Positions 14,189-33,195 of a stretch of DNA of 33,195 nt are shown here, one piece after another. Position 1 is the stretch's first letter, and every line of letters begins with the position of its first letter. Source of the stretch: Alphaproteobacteria bacterium (GTDB lineage Bacteria > Pseudomonadota > Alphaproteobacteria > UBA828); the NCBI GenBank assembly GCA_022826665.1, contig JAJDUK010000052.1, forward strand, positions 1-33,195, read 5' to 3'. The position numbers and the translations under genes were made by a program. The notes under the pieces were generated by a model. That model worked only from the letters and a program-made list of their open reading frames with translations, did not search any database and was not told the DNA's origin.

Positions 14189-14294
14189 GTCGACCTCCCT
14201 TGTTTCATCCTTGCGGATGTTCATCCTCCGGGGCCCTGTGCCCCTTCGTGATGTCGTTTCTCCTCACGCGCGCGCAGTGGAAGCACCTGGCCCT

Positions 14295-14549
14295 AGATGG
14301 TCTTAGGCGGGAGTTGGTGCGGAACGTCGCCGATGTTGGTGCGGAAGTTGGCGTTCTCTGTGCCTGGGAGGCCTGATGCGCAGCCGTGGTGGGTAGCCGC
14401 GTTTCGAGTAGGCCTTCTCAAGAACTGCTAGCATCAGGCCGACGCGCCGGCCCCGCGCGAGGGGCCGGTGCGCCACACACTCGGCGTTGGAGAGTTCTGG
14501 CAAGCCAACTTCACGGTCGGCGACGTTCACGGCCCGCCTTAGACCATCT
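14295..14549. repeat. Large nested inverted repeat between the DUF2493 and 78-residue genes
   Basis: Outer arms 14295-14311 (AGATGGTCTTAGGCGGG) and 14533-14549 are inverted copies differing at one base. Moving inward, both arms share AACGTCGCCGA and GAAGTTGGC in mirrored order, and an innermost perfect pair GGCCTGATGC (14370-14379) / GCATCAGGCC (14431-14440) faces a loop of about 50 nt. A further hairpin (CCGGCCCC/GGGGCCGG, 14448-14469) sits in the right arm. The whole can fold as one long imperfect hairpin about 255 nt long. It could be a MITE-like insertion, a structured RNA or a protein-binding cruciform. I saw no transposase or convincing gene in it. Confidence 0.7.
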
Positions 14550-14689
14550 TGGGTCAGGCCGCAGGGAGCGGAGCGACCGGAGGACCCGCAGGGTTGCTGC
14601 AATGAGCACGCGTGACATCCTCGGACATCACGACGGGGTGGCTATTCTCTCTCCACGCACGGCCCCCGTTTCTGTTGTGCCTGCCGGCA

Positions 14690-14926
14690 TCACGACGACC
14701 AGAGTGGGTGTGAGCGGATACGCTCCTCGGCCACCTCGCGAATGCGCGAGCGCTCGTGCACACGCACTGGGCCGCGGGGATCTTCGTCGAGATGGATCAC
14801 GAAGTAGGACGAACCCGGGTGAAGGATGTCGGGATGACGGAAGAGGTCGCCGACGTGATCGCCGTTGGCGTCGAGGATGCGAGCCTCGTCGTCGCCGACG
14901 CGCGTGAAGGTGATGGTGCTGCTCAT
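14690..14926 (-). CDS. Small conserved-looking hypothetical protein (78 aa)
   Basis: It begins MSSTITFTRVGDDEARI at 14926 with an AGGAG 6 nt upstream. A longer GTG start at 15031 would overlap the toprim stop but has low-complexity sequence and no better ribosome site. The product has alternating strands (EARILDANGDHVGDLFR, SYFVIHLDED) and a basic helical end (RSRIREVAEERIRSHP). I do not recognise the family. It lies 98 nt downstream of the toprim gene and is probably cotranscribed with it. Codon use is that of a real gene. Confidence 0.65.
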   Translation of the reverse strand: MSSTITFTRVGDDEARILDANGDHVGDLFRHPDILHPGSSYFVIHLDEDPRGPVRVHERSRIREVAEERIRSHPLWSS

Positions 14927-15024
14927 GCTGCGCTCCTGGCGTGATTGCGGCGGGGAGAGACCTCTCTCCCTCGCTGCGCCGCTCGCCCGGCGCCTGCCCT
15001 TCCCGGTCTCTCGCTTGGCGATCG

Positions 15025-16020
15025 TCACCACCGGTCCCCGGCGCGGTCCCGGCAGCGGAAGATCGGCGCGAGCCTGGCGCGAAGCGCCGGCGCGCCGAGG
15101 GCGACGAGATCGCTGTTGAAGTCATCGCCCGCGGGCGCGACGACCAGCGCGGCGAGCCTCGCGCGTGTGCAGCGCCGGGCAAGGCGCTCGGCGGCACGCT
15201 CTCCCTCGGGGTCGTTATCGCGCGCGATCACCAGCCGCGTGACGCCGGCAGGCGGCGCGAATGCGCCGAGGCTGCCGGCGGACAGCGCTGCGGCGGCGAT
15301 GGTGTCGGGAATGGCAGTGACGATGGACAGCACGGTCTCGATCCCCTCGCCGACCAGCAGCGTGCCGACGCCGGGAGCGCCGAAGCGGACGGCGCGGCCG
15401 TGGACGCGGCCCAGCGCCTTGCGCGGGCGAATCACATTCGCCTTGGCGGGCTTGGTCGGGTCCAACCACGTGCGATGGACGCCGGTGATGATGTCGTCGT
15501 CGTGAGCGGTGACGGCCGCGACAAGGGCCGGCAGGCGGCGCACGCCGTCGTCGTCGCGGTAGAAGAGGCCGGGATGGAAGCGCAGCGCCGCGAAGCGGCA
15601 GCGCTCAATGCCGCGGGCCTCGAGATAGGCCTCGGCATGGGTGCCGTCGATGGCGCGGCAGCGCTGCCAGAGACGGCGGGCCGCCTGGGTGCGGTCGTAG
15701 TCTTCGGGAACGGCGGAGGACGGCACGGGCGGCGACGCGAGGAAGGCGTGCGCCTCGGCGAGGGCCGCGCGAAGCGAGCCTGCGCCCGAGGAGATGCGAA
15801 TGAGGTCGAGCAGGTCGCCGTGCTCACCGCTGCTTGCGTCGGTCCACTTCCCCGGGACGCCGGGGGGCGCCAGGCGGACGAAGAGCGACCGCCCCCGCGC
15901 GCCGTAGACGTCGCCGGCGGTCCAGTATCGGCCTTGCTTGCGGCCTTGGGGCAGGTAGCGGCGGCACACCTCCTCGGCGCGTGCGCCGAGGGCGGCCGCG
16001 ACGCGAGCGGCGGCGCTCAC
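15025..16020 (-). CDS. Toprim-domain primase/helicase-like protein, minus-strand copy
   Basis: A 331-residue protein starting at a GTG (16020) that overlaps the stop of a short leader ORF as GTGA; GAGGTG lies about 7 nt upstream. Residues 15-75 (EEVCRRYLPQGRKQGRYW, GKWTD, HGDLLDLIR) are the N-terminal domain usual in plasmid toprim proteins. The toprim domain is at about 215-300, with LLVGEGIETVLS (E225) and LVIARDNDPEGE (D268, D270) as metal-binding acidic motifs. Such proteins are primase-like replication factors of plasmids and integrative elements. No zinc finger or helicase part is present. The plus-strand paralog at 26197-27252 matches it end to end. Confidence 0.88.
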   Translation of the reverse strand: MSAAARVAAALGARAEEVCRRYLPQGRKQGRYWTAGDVYGARGRSLFVRLAPPGVPGKWTDASSGEHGDLLDLIRISSGAGSLRAALAEAHAFLASPPVPSSAVPEDYDRTQAARRLWQRCRAIDGTHAEAYLEARGIERCRFAALRFHPGLFYRDDDGVRRLPALVAAVTAHDDDIITGVHRTWLDPTKPAKANVIRPRKALGRVHGRAVRFGAPGVGTLLVGEGIETVLSIVTAIPDTIAAAALSAGSLGAFAPPAGVTRLVIARDNDPEGERAAERLARRCTRARLAALVVAPAGDDFNSDLVALGAPALRARLAPIFRCRDRAGDRW

Positions 16021-16085
16021 GACGCACACCTCGGGCCGGAAAGGGGGCCGGCGGAGCCGGACCTGTGAGCGGGGATGGGGCGCAT
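16017..16085 (-). CDS. Leader ORF (22 aa) overlapping the toprim start
   Basis: ATG at 16085 with GGAGAGG upstream opens a 22-codon frame (MRPIPAHRSGSAGPLSGPRC, then AS) whose TGA overlaps the toprim GTG as GTGA. The paralogous toprim gene has the same arrangement with a different, shorter peptide. The layout suggests translational coupling rather than a functional peptide. Confidence 0.5.
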   Translation of the reverse strand: MRPIPAHRSGSAGPLSGPRCAS

Positions 16086-16225
16086 GAGAGACCTCTCCGG
16101 ATGCTGCGTGGAACGCGCCCCGGTCCCGGCCTCGACCGGCCTCTCGCCGGCGCCGGGACGGCAGGCGCCGCGCGAAGCGTATGGCGCGCCGTCCGGCCAG
16201 TGGAGGACTCGGATCGGGCTGCACG

Positions 16226-16264
16226 AAAAAGCCCGCCCCGCGCGGGAGGAACGCGGGGCGGGCT
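16226..16264 (-). terminator. Intrinsic terminator after ssb
   Basis: A 13-bp stem, AGCCCGCCCCGCG (16230-16242) with CGCGGGGCGGGCT (16252-16264), loop of 9 nt, followed on the minus strand by five T (complement of 16226-16230). It lies 42 nt after the ssb stop and separates ssb from the toprim unit. Confidence 0.9.
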
Positions 16265-16306
16265 CTGGGGCGAGCGGGCGGGGAAGGCCCGCTGCGGGGA
16301 GGGTCG

Positions 16307-16750
16307 CTAAAAGGGTATGGTGCTGTCAGCGGGATCGGCGTCGGCGGCCGGCGCAGCCTCACCGTCGGACGCCTGGGCGCCGTTGCCGTTGGTGCCGGCG
16401 GGGCGATCGAGAAACTGCACGCGGCCACCGGGAACCAGCAGGATCTCGGTCGAGAATCGGTCGCTGTCCTCGCCGTCCTTGCGCCACTTCCTGGTCTGCA
16501 GCTTGCCCGCGACGTAGACCAAACGGCCCTTCTTCGCGTGCTTCTCCAGCATGTCGATCAGCCCGCTCTGGAAGCTGACGACCCTGTGCCACTCTGTCCG
16601 ATCCACCCGCTCGCCGCTCTGGCGATCGATATAGGATTCGTCGGTCGCCACCGACATATTGGCGACGCGGCCGCCGGAGGTGAGGTTGCTGATGGTCGCA
16701 TCGGCGCCCAGCCGGCCGATGATCTGAGCGGAGTTGAGTCCGAACGCCAT
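16307..16750 (-). CDS. ssb: Single-stranded DNA-binding protein, intact copy
   Basis: A 147-residue SSB. The ATG at 16750 follows AAGGAG. The OB fold spans about residues 5-115: NSAQIIGRLGADATI, RVANMSVATDESY, TEWHRVVSFQSGLIDMLEKH, KGRLVYVAGKLQTRKW and DRFSTEILLVPGGRVQFLDR. An Asn/Gly/Ala-rich linker and the acidic tip DSTIPF follow; the tip recruits partner proteins. Length is slightly short for a chromosomal SSB and typical of plasmid copies. It heads the minus cassette and is cut off from the toprim gene by its own terminator. The copy at 25000-25311 has lost the first 52 residues. Confidence 0.92.
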   Translation of the reverse strand: MAFGLNSAQIIGRLGADATISNLTSGGRVANMSVATDESYIDRQSGERVDRTEWHRVVSFQSGLIDMLEKHAKKGRLVYVAGKLQTRKWRKDGEDSDRFSTEILLVPGGRVQFLDRPAGTNGNGAQASDGEAAPAADADPADSTIPF

Positions 16751-16994
16751 GATCGTGTCTCCTTGCGATTCGAGTTGATGACGAAGGTTGACGAGCGGGC
16801 TGGAGCCTCTTCTCGACCCCGCCCTGCTCACCTTCTCCAAGCTCCACACCTCCTCTCGTCTGCCGCCTGCTCCGAGGCTCGCCGGGTTCACGAGGCTTCG
16901 CGGACCGCACGGTCGGTGATTGCCGCGGCGCCGATTCGGGATCGCGGTTGACGGGAGCAGGTTCACGTTCGGAACGCCCGCGGCGGGTCCGCGC

Positions 16995-17804
16995 TCATGA
17001 CGGCAAGAGGGCCATCAGCGGGGCGTTGGATAGGATTTCGACCTGGTCGGGGCGCAGGCGGGCGAAGGCGATGCAGGCGGCGGCCTCGGATTCGGTCTCG
17101 AAGACGCCCAGCTCCTCGCCCGTCTCCAAGTCGACCACGGTAATCTGCGGCGGCCAGAGCGCCGCCAGGTGACGCTCCGGCGCGCGGGAGTTGGACCGAT
17201 ATGCGCAGCGCTCACAGCGGGCTGCGCCCCCGGTGCGGACTCCACAATCCACACATTGCCCCCTGGCGCGTCGTATGTTGTAGCGCCTCTTCCCGGCGGC
17301 GCTCTCGCGCTCGGGGCAGACGCGCTCCTTCTCCAGCGCGAGGCAGCGGCCGCAGCGCGACAGGTCCCCTACCGTGGGCTGGTTGCAACGCACACAACAG
17401 CCGGCAGCCCGTCGCGCGGAATAGCGCCGTCGATCAAGTGCGCGGCGTGCCTCGCGGCACGGCTCGCAGACGGAGCGGTTCTCCTCCGGCCGGCGGAGGC
17501 CGCAGGACGCGCATAGTCCCGCCTCCTGACGCGCCCGTCGGCGGCGCCTGTCGCCGGCGCGGTCGGCGCGGCGGCACCGTTCCGGATCGCGGCCGGCGTA
17601 TTGCTTGCCCTCGGCGCGTGCCTTCGCACGGCGGGCGCGCTCGGCGGCGCGGCGCTTTTCGGCACAGCCGGTGCACATCTTGAGGCCGCGCTCGGGATGA
17701 AGCCGGCCGCAGCGGGTGCATGTCCCACTGGCGGCGCGCGCGGCGTGGCGCCGGCGGAGGCGGCGATCCCGCTCCTGCTTCTTCACCGGGTCCTTGAGCG
17801 GCAT
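16995..17804 (-). CDS. Protein with four tandem CxxC-CxxC zinc-ribbon units
   Basis: A 269-residue, Arg-rich protein. ATG at 17804 is used; a GTG just before it (17807) is also possible. Four units of the form CxxC - about 10-12 residues - CxxC follow one another: CTRCGRLHPERGLKMCTGC, CASCGLRRPEENRSVCEPC, CVRCNQPTVGDLSRCGRC and CVDCGVRTGGAARCERC. Basic linkers separate them. A non-basic C-terminal domain (ITVVDLETGEELGVFETESE) ends it. Each unit should bind one zinc, giving a string of small ribbons suited to nucleic-acid binding. I do not recognise a named family. It follows the 107-residue gene by 15 nt and is probably in its operon. Confidence 0.75.
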   Translation of the reverse strand: MPLKDPVKKQERDRRLRRRHAARAASGTCTRCGRLHPERGLKMCTGCAEKRRAAERARRAKARAEGKQYAGRDPERCRRADRAGDRRRRRARQEAGLCASCGLRRPEENRSVCEPCREARRALDRRRYSARRAAGCCVRCNQPTVGDLSRCGRCLALEKERVCPERESAAGKRRYNIRRARGQCVDCGVRTGGAARCERCAYRSNSRAPERHLAALWPPQITVVDLETGEELGVFETESEAAACIAFARLRPDQVEILSNAPLMALLPS

Positions 17805-17819
17805 CACCGGCCACCCCGG

Positions 17820-18143
17820 TCAGCGCGCGTAGCGGGCGGCGACCAGGCCCGTCGCCTGCCATCCGTAGAGCTGGACCCCGGAGCCTGCCAGCTTGACGCC
17901 GGTGCAGACGATGATCTGGTCGCGTTCGGGCCGCATTCTCTTTACGGCGGCCAGGCTCGCGATCGTGCGTCGTCGCCTGCGTCGGCCTTTCGTCCTGGAC
18001 TGCTCCGTCTCGACGGGCTCGATCTGACCGTCGGGACGCGAGCGGTACGTCTCGACCACGTAGCGCTCGTCCTCAAGACCTCTGCCGAACAGGTGCACCA
18101 AAAAGGTCTGCGCGTCGCGATGGAACATCCGGCCGGTCCGCAT
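17820..18143 (-). CDS. Hypothetical basic protein (107 aa)
   Basis: Starts MRTGRMFHRDAQTFLVHLFG at 18143 with GGGGGAGA about 10 nt upstream; the longer frame to 18218 is low-complexity Ser/Thr and is not used. The middle holds a run of basic residues (RTKGRRRRRRTIASL), the C-terminus is more hydrophobic (IIVCTGVKLAGSGVQLYGW). No family recognised. It precedes the zinc-ribbon gene by 15 nt on the same strand. Confidence 0.6.
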   Translation of the reverse strand: MRTGRMFHRDAQTFLVHLFGRGLEDERYVVETYRSRPDGQIEPVETEQSRTKGRRRRRRTIASLAAVKRMRPERDQIIVCTGVKLAGSGVQLYGWQATGLVAARYAR

Positions 18144-18593
18144 CTTGCCGTCTCCCCCGGTGGTGGTTGTCGATGGCGGGGACCCGCTCCGCAGCGCCGC
18201 CCCCGCCGCCCGCGTCACGGCCGACCTCTTCCTCCTATGGGTACACGGGCGCGATCATGGAGAGGGCAAGGGGGGCAGCCGGTGGTGGGATTCCGCGCCC
18301 GGGTACGGCAGGCCGCGGGCGAGTCTGCGCAAGGCAAGGGCCGGACGCTGCGGCCGGGATGGGCCGGGAAGGACGGTCGTCGTTTGCCCCCTGGCCAGGC
18401 CGTCGTGCTGTGAGCCGGCACGACGGAGGATGTTCGCCGATGGCGATCGTGACGCGCGTCGATCTGGCGTTGGCCGTGCGCGAGGAGAGCCCTGCAGGGA
18501 GCATGCGGACGGCCGAAGTCGATGCCATGCCTCGCGGGGCGGCCCGCAGTGGCCGCGCGGCGCAGTCGCGTCCGTGCCTGCCGGGGAGTGCGG
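18144..18593. other. Gene-free stretch between sigma factor and small basic protein
   Basis: Several frames are open here because of high GC, but none has a recognisable motif or a consistent codon pattern. One plus-strand ATG at 18440 has GGAGG upstream and begins MAIVTRVDLALAVREE, faintly like the start of HU/IHF proteins, but the likeness ends within 20 residues. No terminator was found after the sigma-factor gene. Confidence 0.4.
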
Positions 18594-21302: not shown

Positions 21303-21315
21303 GGCTCTTGTCCTC

Positions 21316-22325: not shown

Positions 22326-23567
22326 CTACCCTCTTGCCCCTGCCGTTCCACGCCGGTCCCGGCCCCGCCTCTCAGCGGCGCGAAGGCCGGCGCTGCCGCG
22401 CAGGATGTCTTCGCCGATGCTGTCCGCGATCCTGGCCGCCGCGGCATTCAGGGCCTCGCGGCTCAGGTGGGCATAGTGCGCCGTCGTCTGCACCTCGGCG
22501 TGGCCCAGCAGCCGCGCGATCATCGGAAGCGATTCCCCGAGCGCCAGCGCGCGCGACGCGAAGCTGTGACGCAGGTCATGAAGCCGCACGTCCTCCAGCC
22601 CGGCACGCTTGCGAAGCCGCAGCCAGGGCTCGTTGAGGCTCGAGATGCGCCGGCCCGGCTGCCTGCCCGGCAGCACCCAGGGATTGTCCGGCGCCCGCCG
22701 CAGCCCCGCCAGCACCTGCACCGCAGCAGGGTTCAGCGGCACCGTGCGCGGTCCCGTCTTGGTGTGGCGCAACCTCAGCTCGCGGCGCTCAAGGTCCACG
22801 TCGTCCCACTGAAGCTCCAGGATCTCGCTGCGACGGCACCCGGTAAGCATGAGGAGCCTGATCGCCGCAACCGTGCTCGGCATCGCCGGGCCGTCCGTCT
22901 CCGCCTCGGCGAGAACCCGGCCCAGGCGGGTGAACTCCTCTTCCGTCAGGAAGCGCTCCCGCCGGCGCACCCGGTGGGGCTTCACGAACCGGCACGGGTT
23001 GCCGCCCTCGGGCGCAAGGCCCCAGTACTCGGCCATGGTGAACAGGCGCGACAGGACCTCGACAACATGGTTCGCCAGCACCGGCCTGTCGCGAAGCTCG
23101 TAGTGCAGCGCCGCGACCTGCTCGCGCGTCACCGCAGAAAGCGGCAACGCGCCGAAGGCCGGCAGGATGTAGCGCTCGATCTTGCGCCGGTACATGCTCG
23201 CCGTGCTCGCTCTGCAGCGCACCGCCACATGCTGCTCGAGGTAGCGTGCCGCGATCTCGCCGACCGTCGGGCCGTCCGGGGGCGGCGGAAGGGGCGACGG
23301 GATCGGGTCCTCCCCCGCCTTGATCCGGGCGATGATCAGCGCCGCCCGCTGCCGCGCCTGGTCCGCCGTGATGACGCCGTGCCGACCCACCGTGAGACGC
23401 TTCGAGCCCTCCGGGCCGCGCACCTGCACGATGTAGTACTTGGCCCCCGACGGATAGACGCGGACCCCGAAGCCGATCAACTCCCGGTCCCAGAACACGG
23501 TGTCCCTGTCGACCGACAGCGCGTCGACCGTGCGCCGCGAGATGGACCGCCGCTTCAGCTTCGCCAT
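22326..23567 (-). CDS. Tyrosine recombinase (phage/island integrase), downstream copy
   Basis: A 413-residue integrase. An N-terminal DUF4102 arm-binding domain (FWDRELIGFGVRVYPSGAK, GRHGVITADQARQRA) is followed by a SAM-like core-binding domain (about 105-190). The catalytic domain carries Arg in LTGCRRSEI, Lys in the HTKTG turn, HxxR in HDLRHSFASRAL, His in LLGHAEV and Tyr in TTAHYAHL. All catalytic residues are present. AAGAGGTG lies before the ATG at 23567. It lies 27 nt behind the second integrase gene, so both are probably in one transcript. Confidence 0.93.
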   Translation of the reverse strand: MAKLKRRSISRRTVDALSVDRDTVFWDRELIGFGVRVYPSGAKYYIVQVRGPEGSKRLTVGRHGVITADQARQRAALIIARIKAGEDPIPSPLPPPPDGPTVGEIAARYLEQHVAVRCRASTASMYRRKIERYILPAFGALPLSAVTREQVAALHYELRDRPVLANHVVEVLSRLFTMAEYWGLAPEGGNPCRFVKPHRVRRRERFLTEEEFTRLGRVLAEAETDGPAMPSTVAAIRLLMLTGCRRSEILELQWDDVDLERRELRLRHTKTGPRTVPLNPAAVQVLAGLRRAPDNPWVLPGRQPGRRISSLNEPWLRLRKRAGLEDVRLHDLRHSFASRALALGESLPMIARLLGHAEVQTTAHYAHLSREALNAAAARIADSIGEDILRGSAGLRAAERRGRDRRGTAGARG

Positions 23568-23594
23568 CGCCGCACCTCTTCCCCGAACGCCGCG

Positions 23595-24776
23595 TCAGGC
23601 AGGCTCGGTCCCGTCATGCAGGACGTGGGCGCCGATGCTGGCCCCGATCTTCGCCGAAGCTGCGATCTCCGTGTCACGCGCAAGATGCGCATAGCGCGCG
23701 GTGGTCCGCACCTTCGTGTGACCGAGCAGACCGCCGATGGTGGTCAGGCTCTCGCCCAGCGCCAGCGCGCGCGAGGCGTACGAGTGACGAAGGTCATGGA
23801 TGCGCACGTCCTTGAGCCCGGCGCGCGCGCACAGGGCCTGCCACGGCGCGTTGATGTTGACCAGGCGGCCGTCGGCGCCGCGGCCCGGAAACACCCAGGG
23901 CTTGCCCTCAACGCGAGGGAGTGCGTCAAGGATCTCCGCCACGAGCGGCGTCAGCGGCACCCGCCGCGGGCCGGTCTTGGCGTGACGAATCCGCAGCTCC
24001 CCCGTGGTCCGGTCCACGTCGTCCCACTTCAGCTCAAGGACCTCGTTGCGCCGGCACCCGGTTAGCATCAGCACGCGGATCGCGGCCACCGTATACACCG
24101 ACATCCGGCCCTTCTCCGCCTCGTCCAGGACGTCGCCCAGCCGGCGGTACTCATCGCGCGTCAGGAAGCGCTCGCGCTTGCGCTCCCGATAGCCGCGCAC
24201 GAAGCGGCAGGGGTTCCTGCCGCCCGTCTCGAAGCCCCAGCCCGGAGCCAGGGCGAACATGTGGGACAGGATCTTCAGCGCCGCGTTGGCTCGTGTGGGC
24301 GTCTCGCGAAGCCGGTAGTGGAGGTCGGCGGCGTGCTTGCGCTCGACCGAGGCGAGCGCCATCTCCCCGAGCGCGGGCAGGATGTGCAGGTCGAGGGAGC
24401 GCCGGTAGTCCTTCACGGTCGCCGGCTGGCAGTTCACCTCCACATGGGCGCGCATGTAGTGCGCGGCCAGGTCGGCCACGGTGGGCTCGGGCTGCGGCTC
24501 TGCCGGGAGCGGGTCCTCGCCGCGCTTGATGCGGTCGATGGCGTCCGCAGCCTTCTTGCGGGCCTGGTCCGGGGTGAGGTCTCCGTGGCGGCCGAGCGTT
24601 GCCCGCTTCGAGCCTTTCGGTCCCCTTGTCTGCACGAGGTAGACCTGGCGGCCGGAGGGATAGACCCTGACCCCGAAGCCGGGCAGGTCGCGGTCCCAGA
24701 AGACGGCGTCGCGCTCGTCAACAGCGAGGGCGTCGATGGTGCGCTTGGAGAGTTTGCGTTCGGCGCGTCTGGGCAT
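23595..24776 (-). CDS. Tyrosine recombinase (phage/island integrase), upstream copy
   Basis: A 393-residue integrase of the same plan as its neighbour: DUF4102 arm domain (FWDRDLPGFGVRVYPSGRQ, GRHGDLTPDQARKKA), core-binding domain and catalytic domain with LTGCRRNEV, HAKTG, HDLRHSYASRAL, LLGHTKV and TTARYAHL. Catalytic Arg, Lys, His, Arg, His and Tyr are intact. The two proteins are clearly paralogous, roughly half identical by eye. The ATG at 24776 begins MPRRAERKLSK and has no clear Shine-Dalgarno; the open frame extends to 25043 but that part does not look like integrase. It faces the truncated ssb about 220 nt away. Confidence 0.92.
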   Translation of the reverse strand: MPRRAERKLSKRTIDALAVDERDAVFWDRDLPGFGVRVYPSGRQVYLVQTRGPKGSKRATLGRHGDLTPDQARKKAADAIDRIKRGEDPLPAEPQPEPTVADLAAHYMRAHVEVNCQPATVKDYRRSLDLHILPALGEMALASVERKHAADLHYRLRETPTRANAALKILSHMFALAPGWGFETGGRNPCRFVRGYRERKRERFLTRDEYRRLGDVLDEAEKGRMSVYTVAAIRVLMLTGCRRNEVLELKWDDVDRTTGELRIRHAKTGPRRVPLTPLVAEILDALPRVEGKPWVFPGRGADGRLVNINAPWQALCARAGLKDVRIHDLRHSYASRALALGESLTTIGGLLGHTKVRTTARYAHLARDTEIAASAKIGASIGAHVLHDGTEPA

Positions 24777-24999
24777 GGGTCGGGTGTAGCGAATTCTCGA
24801 CGGTCGGGCATGGTAGGCGCTCAGTAAGCACCTTGCAAGCGACTGATGTCGAATGGACGCGTAGCGGAGCGTGCTCCTGTCGGGAGTGCGATACGGCATT
24901 ATGGCGGAAAAGTGGCAGAACCCTGCGGTTTTCTCCCAATTCATCGTACCTGATCGTATCTCCGCGTGCGTGTGTCCTGTGGGGAATCCTCTGCTTACT
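24777..24999. other. Junction between integrase and truncated ssb (candidate attachment region)
   Basis: This AT-richer stretch sits between the integrase start and the point where ssb homology begins (25000). On the minus strand TTGCAA (24833-24838), 17 nt and TACCAT (24810-24815) could be the integrase promoter. Because ssb is beheaded exactly on the integrase side, the recombination site should lie here. I could not define a core without the other end. Confidence 0.4.
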
Positions 25000-25311
25000 G
25001 AAAGGCACCGCATCGTCACCTTCCAGGACGGGCTCATCGACATGCTCCAGAAGCACGCCGTGAAGGGCCGCCTGGTCTACGTCGCGGGCAAGCTCCAGAC
25101 CCGGCGCTGGTCGAAGCCCGGCGAGGACGGCGACCGGTTCTCGACCGAGATCCTGCTGGTGCCCGGCGGACGCGTGCAGTTCCTGGACAAGCCGAACGGG
25201 AGCAACGGCAACGGCTCGACGCAGCCGGCCTCGGCGCCCGCGAGCGGCCCGGCGATGCCGGCCGGCGACGGCCCGGCGGCCCCGGACCTGGACGACGATA
25301 TCCCCTTCTGA
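25000..25311 (+). pseudogene. ssb: 5'-truncated ssb
   Basis: From codon 25000 the plus strand reads ERHRIVTFQDGLIDMLQKHA, followed by KGRLVYVAGKLQTRRW, DRFSTEILLVPGGRVQFLD, a Ser/Pro/Ala/Gly linker and the acidic tip DLDDDIPF. This matches the intact SSB at 16307-16750 from residue 53 to the end. The first 52 residues (OB strands 1-3) are missing. Upstream in-frame ATGs at 24871 and 24901 lead into unrelated sequence, so any product would not be a normal SSB. An excellent terminator follows 34 nt after the stop. Confidence 0.85.
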
Positions 25312-25459: not shown

Positions 25460-26026
25460 ATGGCGCGCGACACTTCCATCTTCGCCCACGGGGCGGTCAT
25501 CGTCCCGGACTTCGTCACCCCCGCGGAGGAGGCGCGCCTCCTCCTTCGCATCGCCGAGGCGCCCTGGCTCCCCGAGCTCCGCCGCCGAGTGCAGCACTAC
25601 GGCTACCGCTACAGCTACAGCGGCGACGGCTCGCGCGAGCCCGCGCCGGCCTTCCCACGCTGGGCGGCGTGCATGGCCGAGCGGCTTCGGCCGCACTTCG
25701 CAGGCGCCCTTCCGGTGCAGTGCATCGTGAACGAGTACCGCCCCGGTCAGGGCATCGGGATGCACGCCGACCATCGGCAGTTCGGGCCGGTCGTCGCCTC
25801 GCTGTCGCTCGGCGCCGACTGGCCGATGCGCTTCCGGCCCCGCGCCGCCCGTCCCTACGCCGCCGGCGCGCTGCCCGGCGACGAGGTCGCGGTACTCCCC
25901 CGCCGCTCGGTCCTCGTGCTCGCCGGCGATGCCCGCCATCGCTGGATGCACGGCATCGACCGCGGGATGAGCGCGCGCGAGACCGCGACACGCGTCTCCG
26001 CCACGTTCCGCACGCTCGCGCCCTGA
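25460..26026 (+). CDS. AlkB-like 2-oxoglutarate/Fe(II) dioxygenase
   Basis: A 188-residue enzyme starting MARDTSIFAHGAVIVPDFVT at 25460 behind AGGAGAGAG. It has VNEYRPGQGIGMHADH with the iron ligands H102 and D104, a third His in WMHGI (H164), and the 2-oxoglutarate-binding Arg pair in RVSATFR (R178, R184). The usual AlkB motif is RxNxTFR; here Ser replaces the Asn. AlkB proteins remove alkyl groups from DNA or RNA bases by oxidation. The sequence is a typical short AlkB without extra domains. It sits between the ssb terminator and the toprim gene, a place empty in the minus-strand cassette. Confidence 0.88.
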   Translation: MARDTSIFAHGAVIVPDFVTPAEEARLLLRIAEAPWLPELRRRVQHYGYRYSYSGDGSREPAPAFPRWAACMAERLRPHFAGALPVQCIVNEYRPGQGIGMHADHRQFGPVVASLSLGADWPMRFRPRAARPYAAGALPGDEVAVLPRRSVLVLAGDARHRWMHGIDRGMSARETATRVSATFRTLAP

Positions 26027-26158
26027 GCGGCGCTTCGCGCCCGCTCCCGTCCCGGCCTCGCGGCCGCGCTTCGCTTAAGGCCGCTCGCCCTCCGGCGCCG
26101 GCAGGAGCCGGGCCTGGCCGGTATCGGGCGTCCCGCCCGAACCCCGAGGAGTCCCGCC

Positions 26159-26200
26159 ATGCCCCATTCCCGTTCCGCCCCCGCCGGAGCGGCGCCGTGA
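26159..26200 (+). CDS. Leader ORF (13 aa) overlapping the plus-strand toprim start
   Basis: ATG at 26159, with GAGGAG upstream, encodes MPHSRSAPAGAAP and stops in the GTGA that also starts the toprim gene. The same architecture with a different sequence precedes the paralogous toprim gene. Confidence 0.5.
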   Translation: MPHSRSAPAGAAP

Positions 26201-27252
26201 ACGCCGCCGCCATCGCCGCCCGGCTCGCCGAGCGCGCCGAGGCCGTGTGCCGGCAGTACCTGCCGCACGGCCGGCGCCAGGGCCGCTACTGGGTCGCGGG
26301 CGACCTCGACGGCGCCCGCGGGCGCTCGCTCTACGTCCGGCTCAGGCCCCCCGGCACGCCGGGGAAGTGGACCGACGCGGCCGAAGGGACGCACGGCGAC
26401 CTGCTCGACATCATCCGTCACCGCGTGAACGCGCCGACGCTTCGCGCGGCGCTCGACGAGGCCCGCGCCTTCCTCGCCCTGCCGGCTGCGCCGGCCGCGG
26501 GCGAGGGCGATTCCTACGACGCGACCGAAGCGGCGCGCCGCCTGTGGCGGCGCTGCCGCGCCATCGACGGCACCCACGCGGAGCGCTACCTCCACGCGCG
26601 GGGTCTCGCGCGCTGCCGCTTCGCGGCGCTGCGCTTCCACCCCGAGCTTCGCTACCGCGAAGGCTCGTCCGTGCGCCGCCTCCCGGCGCTGGTCGCCGCC
26701 GTGACCGGCGGCGACGGCGCCATCCTCGGCGTGCAGCGCACCTGGCTCGACCCCCGCTCGCCCGCCAAGGCGGGCGTCGCGGCGCCTCGCAAGGCGCTCG
26801 GGCGCATCTACGGCCACGCCGTCCGGTTCGGACGCCCCGCCGACGGCGCTTCGCTCCTCGTCGGCGAGGGCATCGAGACGGTGCTCTCGCTGGTGACCGC
26901 CGTTCCGGCGATCACCGCCGCCGCCGCACTCTCCGCCGGGAGCCTCGGCGCGTTCGCGCCTCTGCCGGGCGTCACGCGGCTCCTCATCGCCCGCGACAAC
27001 GACGCCGAGGGCGAGCAGGCGGCGGAACGCCTCGCCCGGCGCTGCGCGCGGGCGGGCGTCGCCGCCCTGGTGCTCGTGCCCGAGGGCGAGGACTTCAACG
27101 ACGACCTCGTTGCACTCGGCCGCGACGCGCTCGCCGCGCGTCTCGCCCCGCTGCTCCGCGTGCCGCTCCGCACCGGCTCGCGAGAGTGGGAGTGCTCGCA
27201 AGGGGTGAGGACGGAAGCAGCGTATGGAGAGGGAGCATGGCCCGCATCGTGA
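26197..27252 (+). CDS. Toprim-domain primase/helicase-like protein, plus-strand copy
   Basis: A 351-residue paralog of the protein at 15025-16020. The GTG at 26197 follows GGAGCGGC and overlaps the stop of the leader ORF. The N-terminal domain has RAEAVCRQYLPHGRRQGRYW, GKWTD and HGDLLDIIR. The toprim domain has LLVGEGIETVLS and LLIARDNDAEGE, with all metal-binding acidic residues kept. After the shared part it carries about 25 extra residues of low complexity that run into the next gene, overlapping it by 16 nt. Confidence 0.88.
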   Translation: MNAAAIAARLAERAEAVCRQYLPHGRRQGRYWVAGDLDGARGRSLYVRLRPPGTPGKWTDAAEGTHGDLLDIIRHRVNAPTLRAALDEARAFLALPAAPAAGEGDSYDATEAARRLWRRCRAIDGTHAERYLHARGLARCRFAALRFHPELRYREGSSVRRLPALVAAVTGGDGAILGVQRTWLDPRSPAKAGVAAPRKALGRIYGHAVRFGRPADGASLLVGEGIETVLSLVTAVPAITAAAALSAGSLGAFAPLPGVTRLLIARDNDAEGEQAAERLARRCARAGVAALVLVPEGEDFNDDLVALGRDALAARLAPLLRVPLRTGSREWECSQGVRTEAAYGEGAWPAS

Positions 27253-28034
27253 ATCTGAAGCACGAGCCCGACGCCGTCGCGCGCGGCGCGGTGCGCATCG
27301 ACCGCCGCACGCCCTGGGGCAATCCGTTCGTCGTGGGACGCGACGGAACCAGGGAAGAAGTGATTGCGCGCTTCCGCGTCGAGCTCTGGCGCCGGATCCG
27401 CGCGGGCGAAATCGCCCTTGCGGATCTCGCTTCGCTCGAATCCAGCACGCTGGCCTGCCATTGCTGGCCGGCCAAGTGCCACGGGGAGGTGCTGGCGCGC
27501 GCCGCAGCCTGGGCCGCCGGGCAGCTTCGCGTCCGTGCGGCCTCGGCCGAGCCGATTCTGTTCTGGTCGCGCTGCCCGCAGTGGGGGTGGCTCTCGAACT
27601 TCGCCGCCGCCGGCTTCGCCGGCCCGGGCGGCGAAGTCTGGGCGAGCGTCGAGCACTGGTACCAGGCGGGCAAGGCCGAGGACCCCGCAGCCGCCGAGCG
27701 CATCCGCCGCGCGGCGACGGCGCAGCAAGCGCAGCGCCTCGGGCGCGCCGTTCGCTGCCGCCCCGGCTGGGACGGCGCGAAACTCGCGCGCATGGCCGAG
27801 GGGCTGCTGCTGCGCTTCGCTCCGCAGCGCCCCGACACCGCGCGGCTCATCGCCACCGGCGGGCGGGCGCTCCGCCACGCGACGCCCTGGGGCGCGCACG
27901 GCGACCCCTTCTGGGGGATCGGCCGCGATGGCGCCGGCGCCAACCGCCTCGGCCGCATGCTGGAGGCGGTGCGGACCGCGCGGCGCGAGGACGCGCCGCT
28001 CGCCGCCGCCGCGCTCGCCCACCGCGTCCGCTGA
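27237..28034 (+). CDS. DUF4326-NADAR fusion protein
   Basis: A 265-residue two-domain protein with start ATG 27237 after GAGGGAG. Residues 3-90 are DUF4326: ARIVNLKHEPDAV, TPWGNPFVVGRDGTREEVI and LACHCWPAKCHGEVLA. Residues about 107-255 are a NADAR domain: ILFWSRCPQWGWLSNF, WASVEHWYQAGKAED, a QRLGR helix, PFWGIGRDG and GANRLGRMLEAVR. NADAR domains cleave N-glycosidic bonds; known members act on riboflavin-pathway intermediates or remove ADP-ribose. DUF4326 is uncharacterised. The gene overlaps the toprim gene, so the two are coupled. The minus-strand cassette lacks it. Confidence 0.87.
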   Translation: MARIVNLKHEPDAVARGAVRIDRRTPWGNPFVVGRDGTREEVIARFRVELWRRIRAGEIALADLASLESSTLACHCWPAKCHGEVLARAAAWAAGQLRVRAASAEPILFWSRCPQWGWLSNFAAAGFAGPGGEVWASVEHWYQAGKAEDPAAAERIRRAATAQQAQRLGRAVRCRPGWDGAKLARMAEGLLLRFAPQRPDTARLIATGGRALRHATPWGAHGDPFWGIGRDGAGANRLGRMLEAVRTARREDAPLAAAALAHRVR

Positions 28035-28105
28035 TGGCCCCGCTTCGCGGGAGGAAGAGGAGAGCAGGGAGAAGGGCAGGCCCCCATGGAGAGAGGAGAG
28101 AGACG

Positions 28106-28567
28106 ATGGACGCCGCCGCGAACCCGAGCAGCATCCCGATGGCCCCGCGCTACGTCATCCGCACCATCGACGAGGACTGGATTGACCTCTTCGACCCGCC
28201 GTCGCGCATCGAGGAGAAGCGCGCAGCCTGGGACGAGGCCCGGCGCCGCGTCCGCGAATACCCCGAGCTCAAGACCGTCGTGCTCGACCGCTACACCGGC
28301 GCCACGCTGTGGCAGAGCGACCCGGACGTTCCCGCGCGCTACGAGGTCCTCGCGGTCGACGACACCGTGTTCTACGCGCTGGACACGGACCTGCTTCCGG
28401 GCGACCTGCTCTCCGCCCACAAGGAGAAGGACGACGCCTGGACCGCGTTCTACGAGGCCATCAAGGCGCCCGTGGGCAACGACATCATCGTGCTGCGCGA
28501 CACCATCCCGGGGCAGACCGTCCTCGCGTCTTCCGACGACGACCTCTACAGAACCGATGCGGCGTGA
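28106..28567 (+). CDS. Hypothetical acidic protein (153 aa)
   Basis: Starts MDAAANPSSIPMAPRYVIRT at 28106 after GAGGAGAGAGACG. Mixed alpha/beta appearance: YVIRTIDEDWIDLFDPP, KRAAWDEARRRVREYPELKT, YEVLAVDDTVFYALDTDLLP and NDIIVLRDTIPGQ, with high Asp content and no Cys. I do not recognise the family. High third-position GC and a good ribosome site support a real gene. It follows the NADAR fusion by 71 nt and probably ends that operon. Confidence 0.7.
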   Translation: MDAAANPSSIPMAPRYVIRTIDEDWIDLFDPPSRIEEKRAAWDEARRRVREYPELKTVVLDRYTGATLWQSDPDVPARYEVLAVDDTVFYALDTDLLPGDLLSAHKEKDDAWTAFYEAIKAPVGNDIIVLRDTIPGQTVLASSDDDLYRTDAA

Positions 28568-29055
28568 GGCGGTGGTGCGGTATGCGAAGGGAAGGTTGGG
28601 CGCGTCGCTTCGCGACCGGGCTACCCTGTCGAGCCCGCTGCGCGGTCTCGCCCCTTCGGGCGGGTATCCCTCGCGCCTCCGCTCGCAAGCTCGCTGCGCG
28701 CTCCGCTTGCCAAGAGCGGGCAGGAGAGAAAGCTGCCTCCCGCCGTGACTGGGCATTGTCCCACACGTGCTCAGTGCGCCAACCCCTGCGGGGTCCTCCA
28801 CTCCGCTTCGCTCCGTTGCGGCCGGGACTCGCAGGGCAACGGCGCTGGCGCGCCTAGTCCCGCCGGCGCGCGCGACCGTGGCTCGCTCGATTCGCTCCCT
28901 GCGCCCGCACCACTCGCGCACACCGACGGGCCATGCCCTGCGGCCCCGGTGGCTCCCCTGCGCGCGCGTGAAACATACCCAGTCACCACGGGGGGAGGCC
29001 CCGAGGACGAGCCGCAGACGGTTCGAGACACTCACTTCCGAATCAGGAGAACGTC
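28568..29055. other. Intergenic region upstream of plus-strand DUF2493, with repeat copy 1
   Basis: It holds the first copy of the repeated element (28597-28711). The remainder (28712-29055) shows short inverted GC-rich motifs but no recognised gene. The promoter of the DUF2493 gene must be here; no clear -35/-10 seen. Confidence 0.5.
28597..28711. repeat. Non-coding repeat, copy 1
   Basis: About 115 nt, more than 90% identical by eye to 30966-31081 (roughly eight differences and one indel) and in the same orientation. It is related more distantly to 30285-30367. Shared blocks include GGCGCGTCGCTTCGCGACC and GGGCGGGTATCCCTCGCGCC. On the minus strand CGAGACCGCGCAGCGGGCTCG folds into a short hairpin. 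It lies 30 nt after a gene end. Confidence 0.85.
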
Positions 29056-30060
29056 ATGCTTGACACCGACCGCATCGACACCACGATGGCCGACGCCTTC
29101 GCACAGGCCGGCTTCGACACCACCACCGTCATCGAGACCGGCGACGACGGCGACGACGGACCGCGCGCGCAGTCCCAGACCGCCATCGCTTGCGAGCAGG
29201 CGCAGCTCTTTGGCGCAACGCCCGAGCGCGACGAGTTCGACCCGCGCGACGTCTGGGACCGCGACGACGCGACCGACGCGGTGGGCGAAGCCTTCCGCAT
29301 CATCGCCGAGGGCGTCGCACCGGACGGCTTCCAGCTCGCCGACGAGCGCGAGAGCCTGCTGTGGGGCTTCGTCAACATGCTCGACGCCCAGGTGCGCCGC
29401 CTCGACCGCGCCACCGACCGGCTGCTCCCGGAGATGCGCGACCTCGAACGCGCGCAGGACGGCACCGAGGTGAAGGCCCGCGAGCTCGAGCTCATCACCG
29501 ACCGGGCGCGGAACTTCGGCGACCGCCGCGACGCCTTCGAGACCATGCGCGACCTCGCCGCCGACGCCTACCGCGCAGAGACCGGCGACGTCTGGCGCCC
29601 GCGACGCGGCTCGCACGTCAGCCAGACCGGGCACCTCACCTCGGCGGCCATCGACGCCCGCGACTTCCAGCGCGCGAGGAAGGACCGCGAGCTCCGGGCG
29701 CACCTGCCGCAGGGCACCCTCGTCGCCATCGCGGGCGGGAAGCACGTCGCCGACGTGAACGCCGTCATCGCCCGGCTCGACAAGGCCAAGGCGAAGTACG
29801 ACGACATGGTGCTGGTGCACGGCGGCGGCCCCGGAGTCGAGCGCATCGCCGCGCAGTGGGCGGAGCGGAACGGCGTGCACCAGGTCGTGTGCAAGCCGGA
29901 CTGGAACGCCCACGGACGCGCCGCCCCGTTCCGGCGCAACGACGAGCTGCTGAACCTGCTGCCGAAGGGCGTCATCGCCTTCCCCGGTTCGGGCATCACC
30001 GACAACCTCGTCGACAAGGCCGTCGCGCTCGGCATCCCGGTCCAGCGGGTGGGCGCCTGA
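29056..30060 (+). CDS. DUF2493 / SLOG-superfamily (YspA-like) protein, plus-strand copy
   Basis: A 334-residue paralog of the protein at 13268-14188. Start ATG 29056 follows AGGAGAACGTC. The acidic N-terminus (TVIETGDDGDDGPR) is longer than in the other copy. The helical middle (QVRRLDRATDRLLPEMRDLE) and the C-terminal SLOG domain (LVAIAGGKHVADVN, VHGGGPGVERIA, FRRNDELLNLLPKGVIAF, PGSGIT) are nearly superposable with the minus-strand protein. SLOG domains are predicted to sense or process nucleotide ligands, and genome surveys link them with NADAR and other NAD-related enzymes. A 14-bp-stem terminator follows 15 nt after the stop. Confidence 0.86.
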   Translation: MLDTDRIDTTMADAFAQAGFDTTTVIETGDDGDDGPRAQSQTAIACEQAQLFGATPERDEFDPRDVWDRDDATDAVGEAFRIIAEGVAPDGFQLADERESLLWGFVNMLDAQVRRLDRATDRLLPEMRDLERAQDGTEVKARELELITDRARNFGDRRDAFETMRDLAADAYRAETGDVWRPRRGSHVSQTGHLTSAAIDARDFQRARKDRELRAHLPQGTLVAIAGGKHVADVNAVIARLDKAKAKYDDMVLVHGGGPGVERIAAQWAERNGVHQVVCKPDWNAHGRAAPFRRNDELLNLLPKGVIAFPGSGITDNLVDKAVALGIPVQRVGA

Positions 30061-30743: not shown

Positions 30744-30965
30744 ACCGGACAGCGCACCGCTCGACGCAGACGCCGCTCCCTGCGCCGAGCACGATGATGG
30801 TGCCGGCGCCCATGATGCCGATGCTGGTGAACCCGATGGTGACGACGATTCCGATGATGCCCATGCCGGTTTCGGTGATGGTGGTGCAGATTCCGATGGT
30901 GCAGGCGATGACGGTGATGAGGGTGCCGATGATGGAGACGGGTTCACCGATGCAGTCGATGAGGC
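30721..30965 (-). pseudogene. Isoleucine/threonine-rich membrane-protein frame lacking a start
   Basis: On the minus strand a frame ending at 30721 reads through repeated ATC, ACC and GGC codons with almost every third position G or C, giving a hydrophobic peptide (VSIIGTLITVIACTIGICTT, MGIIGIVVTIGFTSIGIMGA) that would span the membrane at least twice. The other frames of the same DNA give Asp-rich or Met-rich peptides with poor codon use, so this frame is the likely real one. No ATG, GTG or TTG occurs between the repeat border at 30966 and an internal ATG at 30864. Either the gene lost its 5' end at the repeat or a 47-residue product starts at 30864. Confidence 0.5.
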
Positions 30966-31081
30966 TGGGCGCGTCGCTTCGCGACCGGGCTACCCTGCCG
31001 AGCCCGCTGCGCGGTCTCGGCCCGTCGGGCGGGTATCCCTCGCGCCTCCGTTCGCTCCGCTCACTGCGCGCTCCGCTTGCC
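30966..31081. repeat. Non-coding repeat, copy 3
   Basis: About 116 nt matching 28597-28711 in the same orientation at over 90% identity. It abuts the truncated hydrophobic frame exactly at 30965/30966. Confidence 0.85.
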
Positions 31082-31866: not shown

Positions 31867-32250
31867 TCAGTCCGGGGTGCTTCGGCCGAGCGTTTCCTGG
31901 AAGGCGCGGGCCTCCGCGACCAGTCTGTCGACCTCTTCGCCGCGCCCTTCGCGCAGCATCGCGTCGCGCTTCTCGGTCGCGAGGAACCAGGCGTAGCGGA
32001 ACGTCCGCTCGATCAGCGGCGCGAGCAGCAGCGGAACCGGGGCCGCCCCGGCACCCTCGGGGCCGCGCGCGAGCCCCAGCATGGTCCGGCGAACGAACTC
32101 CGCGGCCGGCATGTCGTGCCCCCGCGCCGCGCCCTTGACCTCCTCCCACTCGGAATCCGAGAAGCGGATGCTGCGGGTCCGGCGGAGATCGTCCGCCCGG
32201 GCGGCCGCATTCCCGTCGCCCGAGGCACTGTTGCGTTCGACTTCGCTCAT
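31867..32250 (-). CDS. Ribbon-helix-helix relaxosome accessory-type protein
   Basis: A 127-residue protein starting at 32250 behind a strong AGGAGGGG. After a 20-residue Asn/Ala-rich lead, TRSIRFSDSEWEEVKGAAR and MPAAEFVRRTML form an RHH DNA-binding domain. A helical C-terminus follows (FRYAWFLATEKRDAMLREG, VDRLVAEARAFQ). It lies 42 nt after the relaxase gene on the same strand. In TrwC/TraI-type systems small RHH proteins such as TrwA bind the origin of transfer and help the relaxase; that role is inferred from position and fold. It shares its plan with the protein at 11788-12138. Confidence 0.75.
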   Translation of the reverse strand: MSEVERNSASGDGNAAARADDLRRTRSIRFSDSEWEEVKGAARGHDMPAAEFVRRTMLGLARGPEGAGAAPVPLLLAPLIERTFRYAWFLATEKRDAMLREGRGEEVDRLVAEARAFQETLGRSTPD

Positions 32251-32292: not shown

Positions 32293-33195
32293 TCACAATC
32301 CAAGGTCCATGCCTCCCTTGCCGCGCTCCCGCGCCGGTGCTTCGGCTTCCTTCGCGGGTGCCTTCGACGGCGTTCGTTCCGCCCCGCGGTCCTTCGTCAC
32401 GCCCTCGCCGGCCCCGCGTTCCTGCCCGGCGTCGCGGCTTCGTGTCATGTCCGCGGCTCTGTCCGGCGCCTTGCGGGCCGTCTCGCCGATGCCTTCGAGC
32501 GCCGCGATGCGCTCGCCGGTGACGGCCTGGAGCTGCGCCTTGAGGTCGGCCGCGTCGTCGGTGACCAGCTCGGCGCGGTCCCGCGCCCGGCTGATCTCGA
32601 CGTAGAAGCTCTTCTGCGTGGTCAGGTGCTTGTGCCGCGCTTCCATCGCGGCGATCACGTTGTCCACCGTACGGCCCTGAAACGCGTGCACGGTGGACGC
32701 CCAGGCGTGGTCGAGGTGGCGCAACTGCGGATCGCCCGTGCCGAGATCCAGCGTCTTCCCGTCCTCCAGCCGGAACGTCACCCGTCCGTCCTTCACGGCG
32801 ATCACGTCCGCCGTGCGGCTGTTGACAAGGCCGAGGCCGGCGTCGTTGCGCGTCCAGCGGACGCGGTCGCCGGCCCTGAGCTCGATGTCCTCGCGGCGGT
32901 AGACCTCGCTGCCGCCCCGTCGCCCTCCGATCTCGTCGGGCTTCCAGGCGACGGCGCCGCCGTGGCGATCGTCGAGCAGGACCTCGTGGTTCGCGCGGTC
33001 GACGCCCGTGACCGTGAGCTCGTCGCCCTTCCCGACGCCGATCCGTTTGTAGGGACGGTGGAACGCCACCACGTCGCCGGCCGCGTAGTTGGCGGCGAGC
33101 GCCTTCTCAGGCCCGGTGTAGCCCTTCGAGACCAGCCGCTCGGACTGCATGGCGGGGCCTCGGATGCGCCCCTCGCGGGCGAGGCGCTCGCGGAT
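32293..33195 (-). CDS. TraI/TrwC-type conjugative relaxase-helicase, C-terminal part
   Basis: The last 300 residues of a protein that enters from the right edge with no start in the window. It has the 1B/2B-type strands of RecD-like helicases (YAAGDVVAFHRPYKRIGVGKG, ELRAGDRVRWTRND, VIAVKDGRVTFRLEDG). Helicase motif V is STVHAFQGRTVDNVI and motif VI is SFYVEISRARDRAELVTD. A charged, Pro/Ala/Glu-rich tail ends it. MobF relaxases nick the origin of transfer with an N-terminal domain (not in the window) and unwind with this one. It shows that the right part belongs to a conjugative or mobilisable element. Confidence 0.88.
   Translation of the reverse strand: MRERLAREGRIRGPAMQSERLVSKGYTGPEKALAANYAAGDVVAFHRPYKRIGVGKGDELTVTGVDRANHEVLLDDRHGGAVAWKPDEIGGRRGGSEVYRREDIELRAGDRVRWTRNDAGLGLVNSRTADVIAVKDGRVTFRLEDGKTLDLGTGDPQLRHLDHAWASTVHAFQGRTVDNVIAAMEARHKHLTTQKSFYVEISRARDRAELVTDDAADLKAQLQAVTGERIAALEGIGETARKAPDRAADMTRSRDAGQERGAGEGVTKDRGAERTPSKAPAKEAEAPARERGKGGMDLGL

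What the first reader, a model, noticed from the sequence alone, without database searches (positions are those of the whole stretch)
25460..30060. Candidate nucleotide-conflict cassette: AlkB, toprim, DUF4326-NADAR, unknown acidic protein and SLOG
NADAR enzymes cut N-glycosidic bonds including ADP-ribose attachments, SLOG domains are predicted to bind nucleotide ligands, and AlkB removes base alkyl groups. Together on a conjugative element they look like a repair or counter-defence set that clears base modifications or ADP-ribose from incoming DNA, with SLOG as possible sensor. The homologous minus cassette lacks AlkB and NADAR, so these are added cargo. The 153-residue acidic protein is the unknown member.
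Basis: partly seen in the sequence, partly recalled or inferred. Interest (0 to 1): 0.68.

Follow-up and report, generated by a model that had tools for sequence, protein, structure and literature searches.

The report
Mobile-element kit that cleans modified DNA
A gene cluster on a mobile DNA element groups a DNA-repair enzyme (AlkB) and an enzyme predicted to strip ADP-ribose (NADAR) with the element's single-strand-binding and primase genes; the same grouping, reshuffled, recurs in dozens of related elements across several bacterial phyla, suggesting that these elements carry their own kit for cleaning chemically tagged DNA as they enter a new host.

Summary
In detail: alkB, toprim (DUF7146), DUF4326-NADAR fusion, an unknown acidic 153-aa protein and a YAcAr-family SLOG protein lie in order on the + strand, right after a truncated ssb. 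The reading "AlkB and NADAR are cargo added to this cassette" is only partly right. The own genome holds about ten paralogous ssb-toprim-SLOG cassettes, five with alkB. A database scan with AlkB alone, plus the genus, gives 31 non-redundant loci: ssb lies within 4 kb in 25, and a macro, NADAR or DUF4326 domain in 21; 7 control AlkB loci have none. Sister cassettes carry an orphan DarG-type macrodomain (PDB E about 1e-40 to DarG), read in one open frame with AlkB in 8 loci and with NADAR in one, with no DarT toxin. The set is shuffled in at least five orders around ssb and toprim. Best explanation: an element-borne module that removes alkyl/etheno and ADP-ribose adducts from the element's single-stranded DNA, a counter-defence against DarT-like transferases. 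Gene content, joins, recurrence and catalytic residues are shown; substrates, timing and the opponent are inferred. Phage ADPr-eraser sets are already published; the coupling to ssb/primase/AlkB on conjugative elements appears new.

The parts
25004..25311 (+). 3' half of ssb (OB-fold end plus acidic DLDDDIPF tail), truncated at 25004 next to the integrase pair
   Evidence: Pfam SSB E=1e-7; homology to dozens of intact element ssb genes starts exactly at 25004
25460..26026 (+). alkB, ALKBH8-type 2OG-Fe(II) dioxygenase; HxD...H and Arg conserved
   Evidence: PF13532; closest solved: ALKBH8; catalytic residues in 30 copies
26197..27252 (+). DUF7146-Toprim_3 primase-like gene, core of the element module
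   Evidence: PHROG DNA primase E=3e-35
27237..28034 (+). DUF4326-NADAR fusion; His at the family-diagnostic position (as in phage gp30.3 NADARs), E and K of the active site kept
   Evidence: residue classes from PMC11543638 and PMC11125620
28106..28567 (+). acidic 153-aa protein, predicted as two beta-alpha-beta-beta units, recurrent member of the module, function unknown
   Evidence: orthologues in L113, L114, L145, L152; AlphaFold pLDDT 68; no fold match
29056..30060 (+). SLOG, YAcAr/DUF2493 family, core of the element module
   Evidence: 736 plasmid records, 464 conjugative
31867..32250 (-). small RHH-like gene that accompanies the relaxase in sister cassettes
32293..33195 (-). C-terminal helicase part of the relaxase (UvrD_C_2), runs off the contig
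23595..24776 (-). second of two tandem tyrosine integrases; sits against the broken ssb
22326..23567 (-). first of two tandem tyrosine integrases
28593..28735 (+). structured intergenic element, second copy at 30962-31081, shared by sister cassettes
13271..18218 (-). paralogous minus-strand cassette without alkB/NADAR: two unknown genes, ssb, toprim, unknown, SLOG

Best explanation
The cluster is one version of a mosaic module of conjugative elements that keeps the element's single-stranded DNA usable during and after transfer. SSB coats the entering strand and the toprim protein takes part in making the second strand. AlkB oxidatively removes alkyl or etheno adducts from the strand. NADAR (here) and the DarG-type macrodomain (in sister cassettes) remove ADP-ribose from bases, probably guanine and thymine respectively. 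DUF4326 probably processes the released or attached ADP-ribose, and SLOG binds a nucleotide. The adducts come from host or rival-element DarT-like transferases that attack single-stranded DNA, and from chemical damage. Shown here: gene content, recurrence, in-frame joins, conserved catalytic residues, absence of a partner toxin. Inferred: substrates, action on the transferred strand, and the opposing systems.
For: AlkB used alone as bait finds 26 loci, 19 of them new, in MAGs labelled Alphaproteobacteria, Gammaproteobacteria, Acidobacteria, Vicinamibacteria and one closed Ca. Binatia chromosome. Of 31 non-redundant loci, 25 have ssb and 21 have macro, NADAR or DUF4326 within 4 kb, against 0 of 7 control AlkB loci. 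The AlkB tree shows at least five gene orders among the clades, so the set stays together while its order changes. Macro and AlkB share one open frame without stops in 8 of 8 such loci; macro and NADAR share one in L007. The macro domain's best solved matches are DarG of M. tuberculosis and T. aquaticus (E=8e-41, 7e-38; chain names as deposited are generic, identity of 5m3i/5m31 as DarG is from knowledge) and PADLOC DarG E=6e-61; the catalytic Lys motif FPTK is kept in all 15 copies read. None of the 32 element loci checked has DarT or the DarT-binding part of DarG; only a true DarTG in G005:C139 of the same genus does, while reference plasmids carry the same macro as DarT-DarG pairs. DarT modifies ssDNA (PMC7003065), NADARs hydrolyse ADPr-guanine in DNA (PMC11543638, PMC11125620), and an ALKBH8-like bacterial AlkB repairs etheno adducts and reactivates damaged ssDNA phage (PMC4051686).
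Against: No biochemical or transfer data. The window's own genome has no DarT, so the opposing enzyme is hypothetical there. The window cassette has lost half of its ssb, so it may be partly decayed. ALKBH8-type enzymes can act on RNA. The literature on phages prefers soluble ADP-ribose derivatives as NADAR/macro targets (PMC9503650). Most loci come from MAG contigs, so phylum labels may be binning errors; related cassettes are not independent samples.
Confidence: 0.47

Rival explanations
1. The NADAR, macro, DUF4326 and SLOG proteins destroy or sense small ADP-ribose derivatives (signals or toxic metabolites) made by NAD-dependent host immunity, and AlkB is an independent repair passenger.
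For: [quoted passage not shown]). The window NADAR has the phage-type His. A RES-domain gene lies near the toprim-DUF2493 core on a Mesorhizobium plasmid.
Against: The macro partner is of the DarG type, whose known substrate is DNA; AlkB, a nucleic-acid enzyme, is read in frame with it in 8 loci; ssb adjacency in 25 of 31 loci.
Confidence: 0.23
2. RNA-repair module: AlkB (ALKBH8-type) and the ADP-ribose erasers mend host tRNA or rRNA damaged by abortive-infection toxins.
For: Closest solved relative is the tRNA hydroxylase ALKBH8; NADAR and macro enzymes have been linked to RNA repair (PMC9503650).
Against: No RNA ligase, kinase, RtcB or KptA was recognised in the cassette genes scanned; bacterial ALKBH8 did not change tRNA-Gly modification in Agrobacterium (PMC4051686); neighbours are ssDNA proteins.
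Confidence: 0.12
3. Anti-addiction: the erasers protect the element and host against DarTG toxin-antitoxin systems carried by competing plasmids, not against host immunity.
For: DarT-DarG pairs occur on plasmids; the genus carries one DarTG; cassettes lack the toxin.
Against: Does not explain AlkB or the tie to ssb and primase by itself; also compatible with the best explanation.
Confidence: 0.08
4. Ordinary accessory cargo: genes that accumulate in the same variable spots of a conjugative backbone with no joint function.
For: ssb-toprim-SLOG is a backbone found with many different neighbours; several cassettes lack alkB and all erasers; DUF4326 sits among varied conflict genes on other plasmids.
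Against: In-frame joins of macro-AlkB, macro-NADAR and DUF4326-NADAR; the set stays together through at least five rearrangements; none of 7 control AlkB loci shows it.
Confidence: 0.1

Closest known systems
DarTG toxin-antitoxin systems (DarT2-DarG macro, DarT1-NADAR)
   Same: Macro domain of sister cassettes is DarG-like with its catalytic Lys; NADAR family is the DarT1 antitoxin family; both reverse base ADP-ribosylation of DNA.
   Different: No DarT, no DarT-binding domain; macro stands alone or joined to AlkB or NADAR; NADAR joined to DUF4326 and with His instead of the DarT1-linked Asp.
Phage NAD/ADPr counter-defence sets (NADAR, Macro, SLOG, DUF4326; PMC9503650, PMC7824862)
   Same: Same four domain families, including DUF4326 fusions, in mobile genomes.
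   Different: Here on conjugative elements, next to ssb and toprim, with AlkB and Macro-AlkB joins not mentioned in the passages read from those papers.
Anti-defence islands in plasmid leading regions (PMC11541004)
   Same: Clusters of protective genes around ssb on conjugative DNA.
   Different: That paper's main text mentions no NADAR, macrodomain, AlkB or ADP-ribosylation; oriT position is unknown here.
Toprim-DUF2493 core of alphaproteobacterial conjugative plasmids
   Same: Same toprim-SLOG pair.
   Different: Adds ssb, alkB and the ADP-ribose erasers.
Bacterial ALKBH8-like AlkB (Rhizobium etli type; PMC4051686)
   Same: Single-domain AlkB closest to ALKBH8.
   Different: A distinct element-borne family (61-89% identical to the query alignment); best plasmid match outside is about 37% identical.

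Membership tests
DarTG toxin-antitoxin system | DarT ADP-ribosyltransferase gene beside the antitoxin | tested here: not met
   No DarT in G000 (PF14487) nor in any of the 32 element loci tested; the only positive is the true DarTG locus L143.
DarTG toxin-antitoxin system | ADP-ribose-removing domain (macro or NADAR) with catalytic residues | tested here: met
   Window NADAR E=4e-21 with active-site E and K kept; macro in sister cassettes, FPTK Lys kept in 15 of 15.
DarT1-associated NADAR (BC4488 subfamily) | Catalytic Asp in the last strand | tested here: not met
   Window has His (LRHAT), the stand-alone genus NADARs have Glu (IVEVSTRD) (classes).
Phage-type NADAR (gp30.3) | His at the diagnostic position | tested here: met
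   Alignment to 2b3w and 8bau; PHROG 1017 E=3e-23. One residue read from a pairwise alignment.
AlkB 2OG-Fe(II) dioxygenases | HxD...H iron triad and 2OG-binding Arg | tested here: met
   Iron triad conserved in all 30 copies and the Arg in all 29 with that column.
Phage-like ADPr counter-defence set | Physical association of NADAR/Macro/SLOG/DUF4326 in a mobile genome | tested here: met
Leading-region anti-defence island | Position next to oriT on the transferred strand | not tested
   No oriT was identified; the contig ends inside the relaxase gene.
Leading-region anti-defence island | Clustered with ssb, genes co-directional | tested here: met
   All cassette genes on + strand; ssb within 4 kb in 25 of 31 loci.

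The most novel reading that the evidence does not exclude
Conjugative elements of several phyla carry a dedicated 'strand-scrubbing' module: a Macro-AlkB or Macro-NADAR or DUF4326-NADAR enzyme acting with the element's own SSB to strip both ADP-ribose and alkyl adducts from the incoming single strand before it is copied, the first described counter-defence of conjugation against base ADP-ribosylation.
Probability: 0.3. Interest if true: 0.8.

Novelty: new variant of a known kind. Interest (0 to 1): 0.62.

Why it matters
Conjugation delivers DNA as a single strand, which is what DarT-type enzymes modify, yet no plasmid-borne answer to DNA ADP-ribosylation turned up in the literature searched. 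A recurrent module that couples ADP-ribose erasers and AlkB to the element's own ssb and primase would extend anti-defence beyond restriction and CRISPR, and would give substrates to three open families (element-borne ALKBH8-like AlkB, DUF4326, phage-type NADAR). The Macro-AlkB join is a direct, cheap test case.

Tried and rejected
Rejected: a plain DarTG toxin-antitoxin pair (no DarT). Rejected: an isolated insertion of cargo into one cassette. The first genome-contig scan with the whole fusion protein gave nothing. No plasmid matched the acidic protein. Acidic protein as a two-repeat protein: sequence self-similarity not significant; AlphaFold shows two beta-alpha-beta-beta units at low confidence with no Foldseek match. 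DUF4326 fold: confident model but only viral DUF4326 matches, no solved relative, so the published rhodanese-phosphatase assignment was not confirmed. The alignment meant to model both halves of the fusion misaligned NADAR onto DUF4326, so the NADAR half was modelled from one sequence and is unreliable. Rfam: nothing convincing. One script printed BLAST warnings because protein files were mixed in; the nucleotide hits it lists are unaffected. The DUF4326 neighbours on reference plasmids are varied conflict genes, supportive but not specific.

Full report
What is there. Just upstream lies the 3' half of an ssb gene; homology to intact element ssb genes starts sharply at 25004, where a pair of tandem tyrosine integrases abuts it. 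Downstream, on the other strand, are a small RHH-like gene and the C-terminal helicase part of a relaxase, cut by the contig end. The window is a complete contig of a 4.6 Mb draft genome; sister genomes of the same genus are uncultured MAGs labelled Rhodospirillales or Alphaproteobacteria.

The cassette is one of many. The same genome has about ten related cassettes built on ssb, toprim and SLOG, five with alkB. Across eight genomes of the genus the core (two unknown genes, ssb, toprim, SLOG, then the RHH-like gene and relaxase) recurs more than thirty times, in whole or in part. In all 12 genus copies, alkB lies directly beside ssb, upstream in some and downstream in others. The toprim-SLOG pair is also a backbone of rhizobial and other conjugative plasmids: the SLOG protein matches 736 plasmid records, 464 of them typed conjugative, with toprim next to it in the example opened. 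So toprim and SLOG are backbone; alkB, NADAR, DUF4326 and the acidic protein are the variable part.

ADP-ribose erasers recur beside alkB and ssb. A YbiA-type NADAR sits between alkB and toprim in the cassette on contig C85. Several other cassettes carry a macrodomain. Its closest solved relatives are 5m3i and 5m31, the DarG macrodomains of M. tuberculosis and T. aquaticus (E=8e-41 and 7e-38; that these entries are DarG is known from the literature), and the PADLOC DarG model (E=6e-61). The FPTK motif that holds the DarG catalytic lysine is kept in all 15 copies read. Macro and AlkB lie in a single open frame without stops in 8 of 8 loci with that order; macro and NADAR do so in C85. An internal start for alkB is possible, so 'fusion' should be confirmed at the protein level. 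With the window's DUF4326-NADAR this makes three kinds of in-frame join among the same small set of families.

Recurrence outside the genus. A scan of one genome per species with the AlkB alignment as the only bait gave 26 loci, 19 of them new, in MAGs labelled Alphaproteobacteria, Thiotrichales, Pseudomonadales, Acidobacteria, Vicinamibacteria and one closed Ca. Binatia chromosome. Over 31 non-redundant loci, many cut short by contig ends, ssb lies within 4 kb in 25, macro/NADAR/DUF4326 in 21, toprim in 17, a second DprA-like SLOG in 19, the main SLOG in 12 and the acidic protein in 6. Seven control AlkB loci (six from class-level relatives, one from a viral contig) have none of these. An AlkB tree with the gene orders written on it shows at least five arrangements. 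These are related copies and not independent samples, and the profiles were built from some of the same loci; but the bait was AlkB alone and the domains are recognised by Pfam.

No partner toxin. DarT was not found in the window's genome, and none of the 32 element loci examined holds DarT or the DarT-binding half of DarG; the single positive is a true DarTG in genome G005 of the same genus. On reference plasmids the same macrodomain family occurs in ordinary DarT-DarG pairs. The cassettes therefore carry orphan erasers. This rejects membership in the DarTG toxin-antitoxin systems and leaves 'works like an antitoxin or counter-defence'.

Residues. AlkB keeps the HxD...H iron triad in all copies and the 2OG arginine in all copies that reach it, and is closest to ALKBH8; the tested bacterial ALKBH8-like enzyme of R. 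etli repairs etheno adducts and reactivates damaged ssDNA phage, and a tRNA role was not found in Agrobacterium (PMC4051686). The window NADAR keeps the active-site Glu and Lys but has His at the position that separates subfamilies (Glu in YbiA, Asp with DarT1, His in phage gp30.3; PMC11125620, PMC11543638). All NADARs tested in that paper hydrolysed guanine-linked ADP-ribose in vitro, including the phage type.

Mechanism. The most economical reading is that the variable genes act on the element's single-stranded DNA: SSB and toprim handle the strand, AlkB removes alkyl or etheno adducts, macro and NADAR remove ADP-ribose from thymine and guanine, and DUF4326, predicted elsewhere to act on phosphates of ADP-ribose products (PMC9503650), finishes the job. 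DarT enzymes modify single-stranded DNA (PMC7003065), which is the form in which conjugation delivers DNA (abstract of PMC9849209). The steps from substrate to effect are inferred. The main rival is that macro/NADAR/DUF4326/SLOG act on soluble ADP-ribose derivatives, as proposed for phages.

Novelty. Sets of NADAR, Macro, SLOG and DUF4326 in phages, including DUF4326 fusions, were published in 2021-2022. The leading-region anti-defence survey mentions none of NADAR, macrodomain, AlkB or ADP-ribosylation in its main text, and the only two papers in the searched library with at least three of AlkB, NADAR, macro domain and conjugative are those phage surveys. The coupling to ssb/primase with AlkB on conjugative elements, and the Macro-AlkB open frame, appear undescribed in what could be searched; supplementary files and subscription papers were not.

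Limits. Drafts and MAGs; contig ends; possible misbinning; no oriT; no assays. The acidic protein remains unexplained: recurrent, pI 4.3, two predicted beta-alpha-beta-beta units at low confidence, no fold match.

Noticed in passing
window 28593-28735 and 30962-31081; L007 14566, L114 3386, L011 1398-1517, L160, L101, L163, L152, L145 and others: A ~120-nt GC-rich structured intergenic element, co-oriented with the cassette and up to 95% conserved; only 10 matches in the whole genome, at least 8 on cassette contigs. Predicted helices show two-sided changes (8 of 30 pairs). Could be an ssDNA promoter, terminator-like or repeat element.
   Followed up: partly
window 22326-25043: Two tandem tyrosine integrases abut an ssb gene broken at 25004; a similar integrase pair occurs in L035 and an int2-like gene follows alkB in L153, suggesting an island that inserts in or near ssb of these elements.
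   Followed up: partly
window 18594-20513: A complete rpoD-like sigma-70 gene stands beside the minus-strand cassette; the genome has four full-length rpoD-like genes.
   Followed up: no
L137-L142 (G003:C319, G000:C55, G001:C328, G007:C60, G005:C65, G000:C45): Stand-alone YbiA-type NADAR recurs beside a highly conserved AAA ATPase-like protein (about 97% identical in several) and, in some, a DUF3150-like gene: a second recurrent NADAR neighbourhood.
   Followed up: partly
L009 2221-2799, L007 7704-8378 and 17 more element loci: A second SLOG-like gene (PHROG DprA-like, E=3e-49) lies near alkB/ssb in 19 of 31 loci; it is absent from the window cassette.
   Followed up: partly
window 20606-21338: PIN toxin with Phd/YefM antitoxin between the two cassettes.
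   Followed up: no
L143 2075-3764 (G005:C139): A true DarT-DarG operon in the same genus, a possible natural opponent of the orphan erasers.
   Followed up: partly
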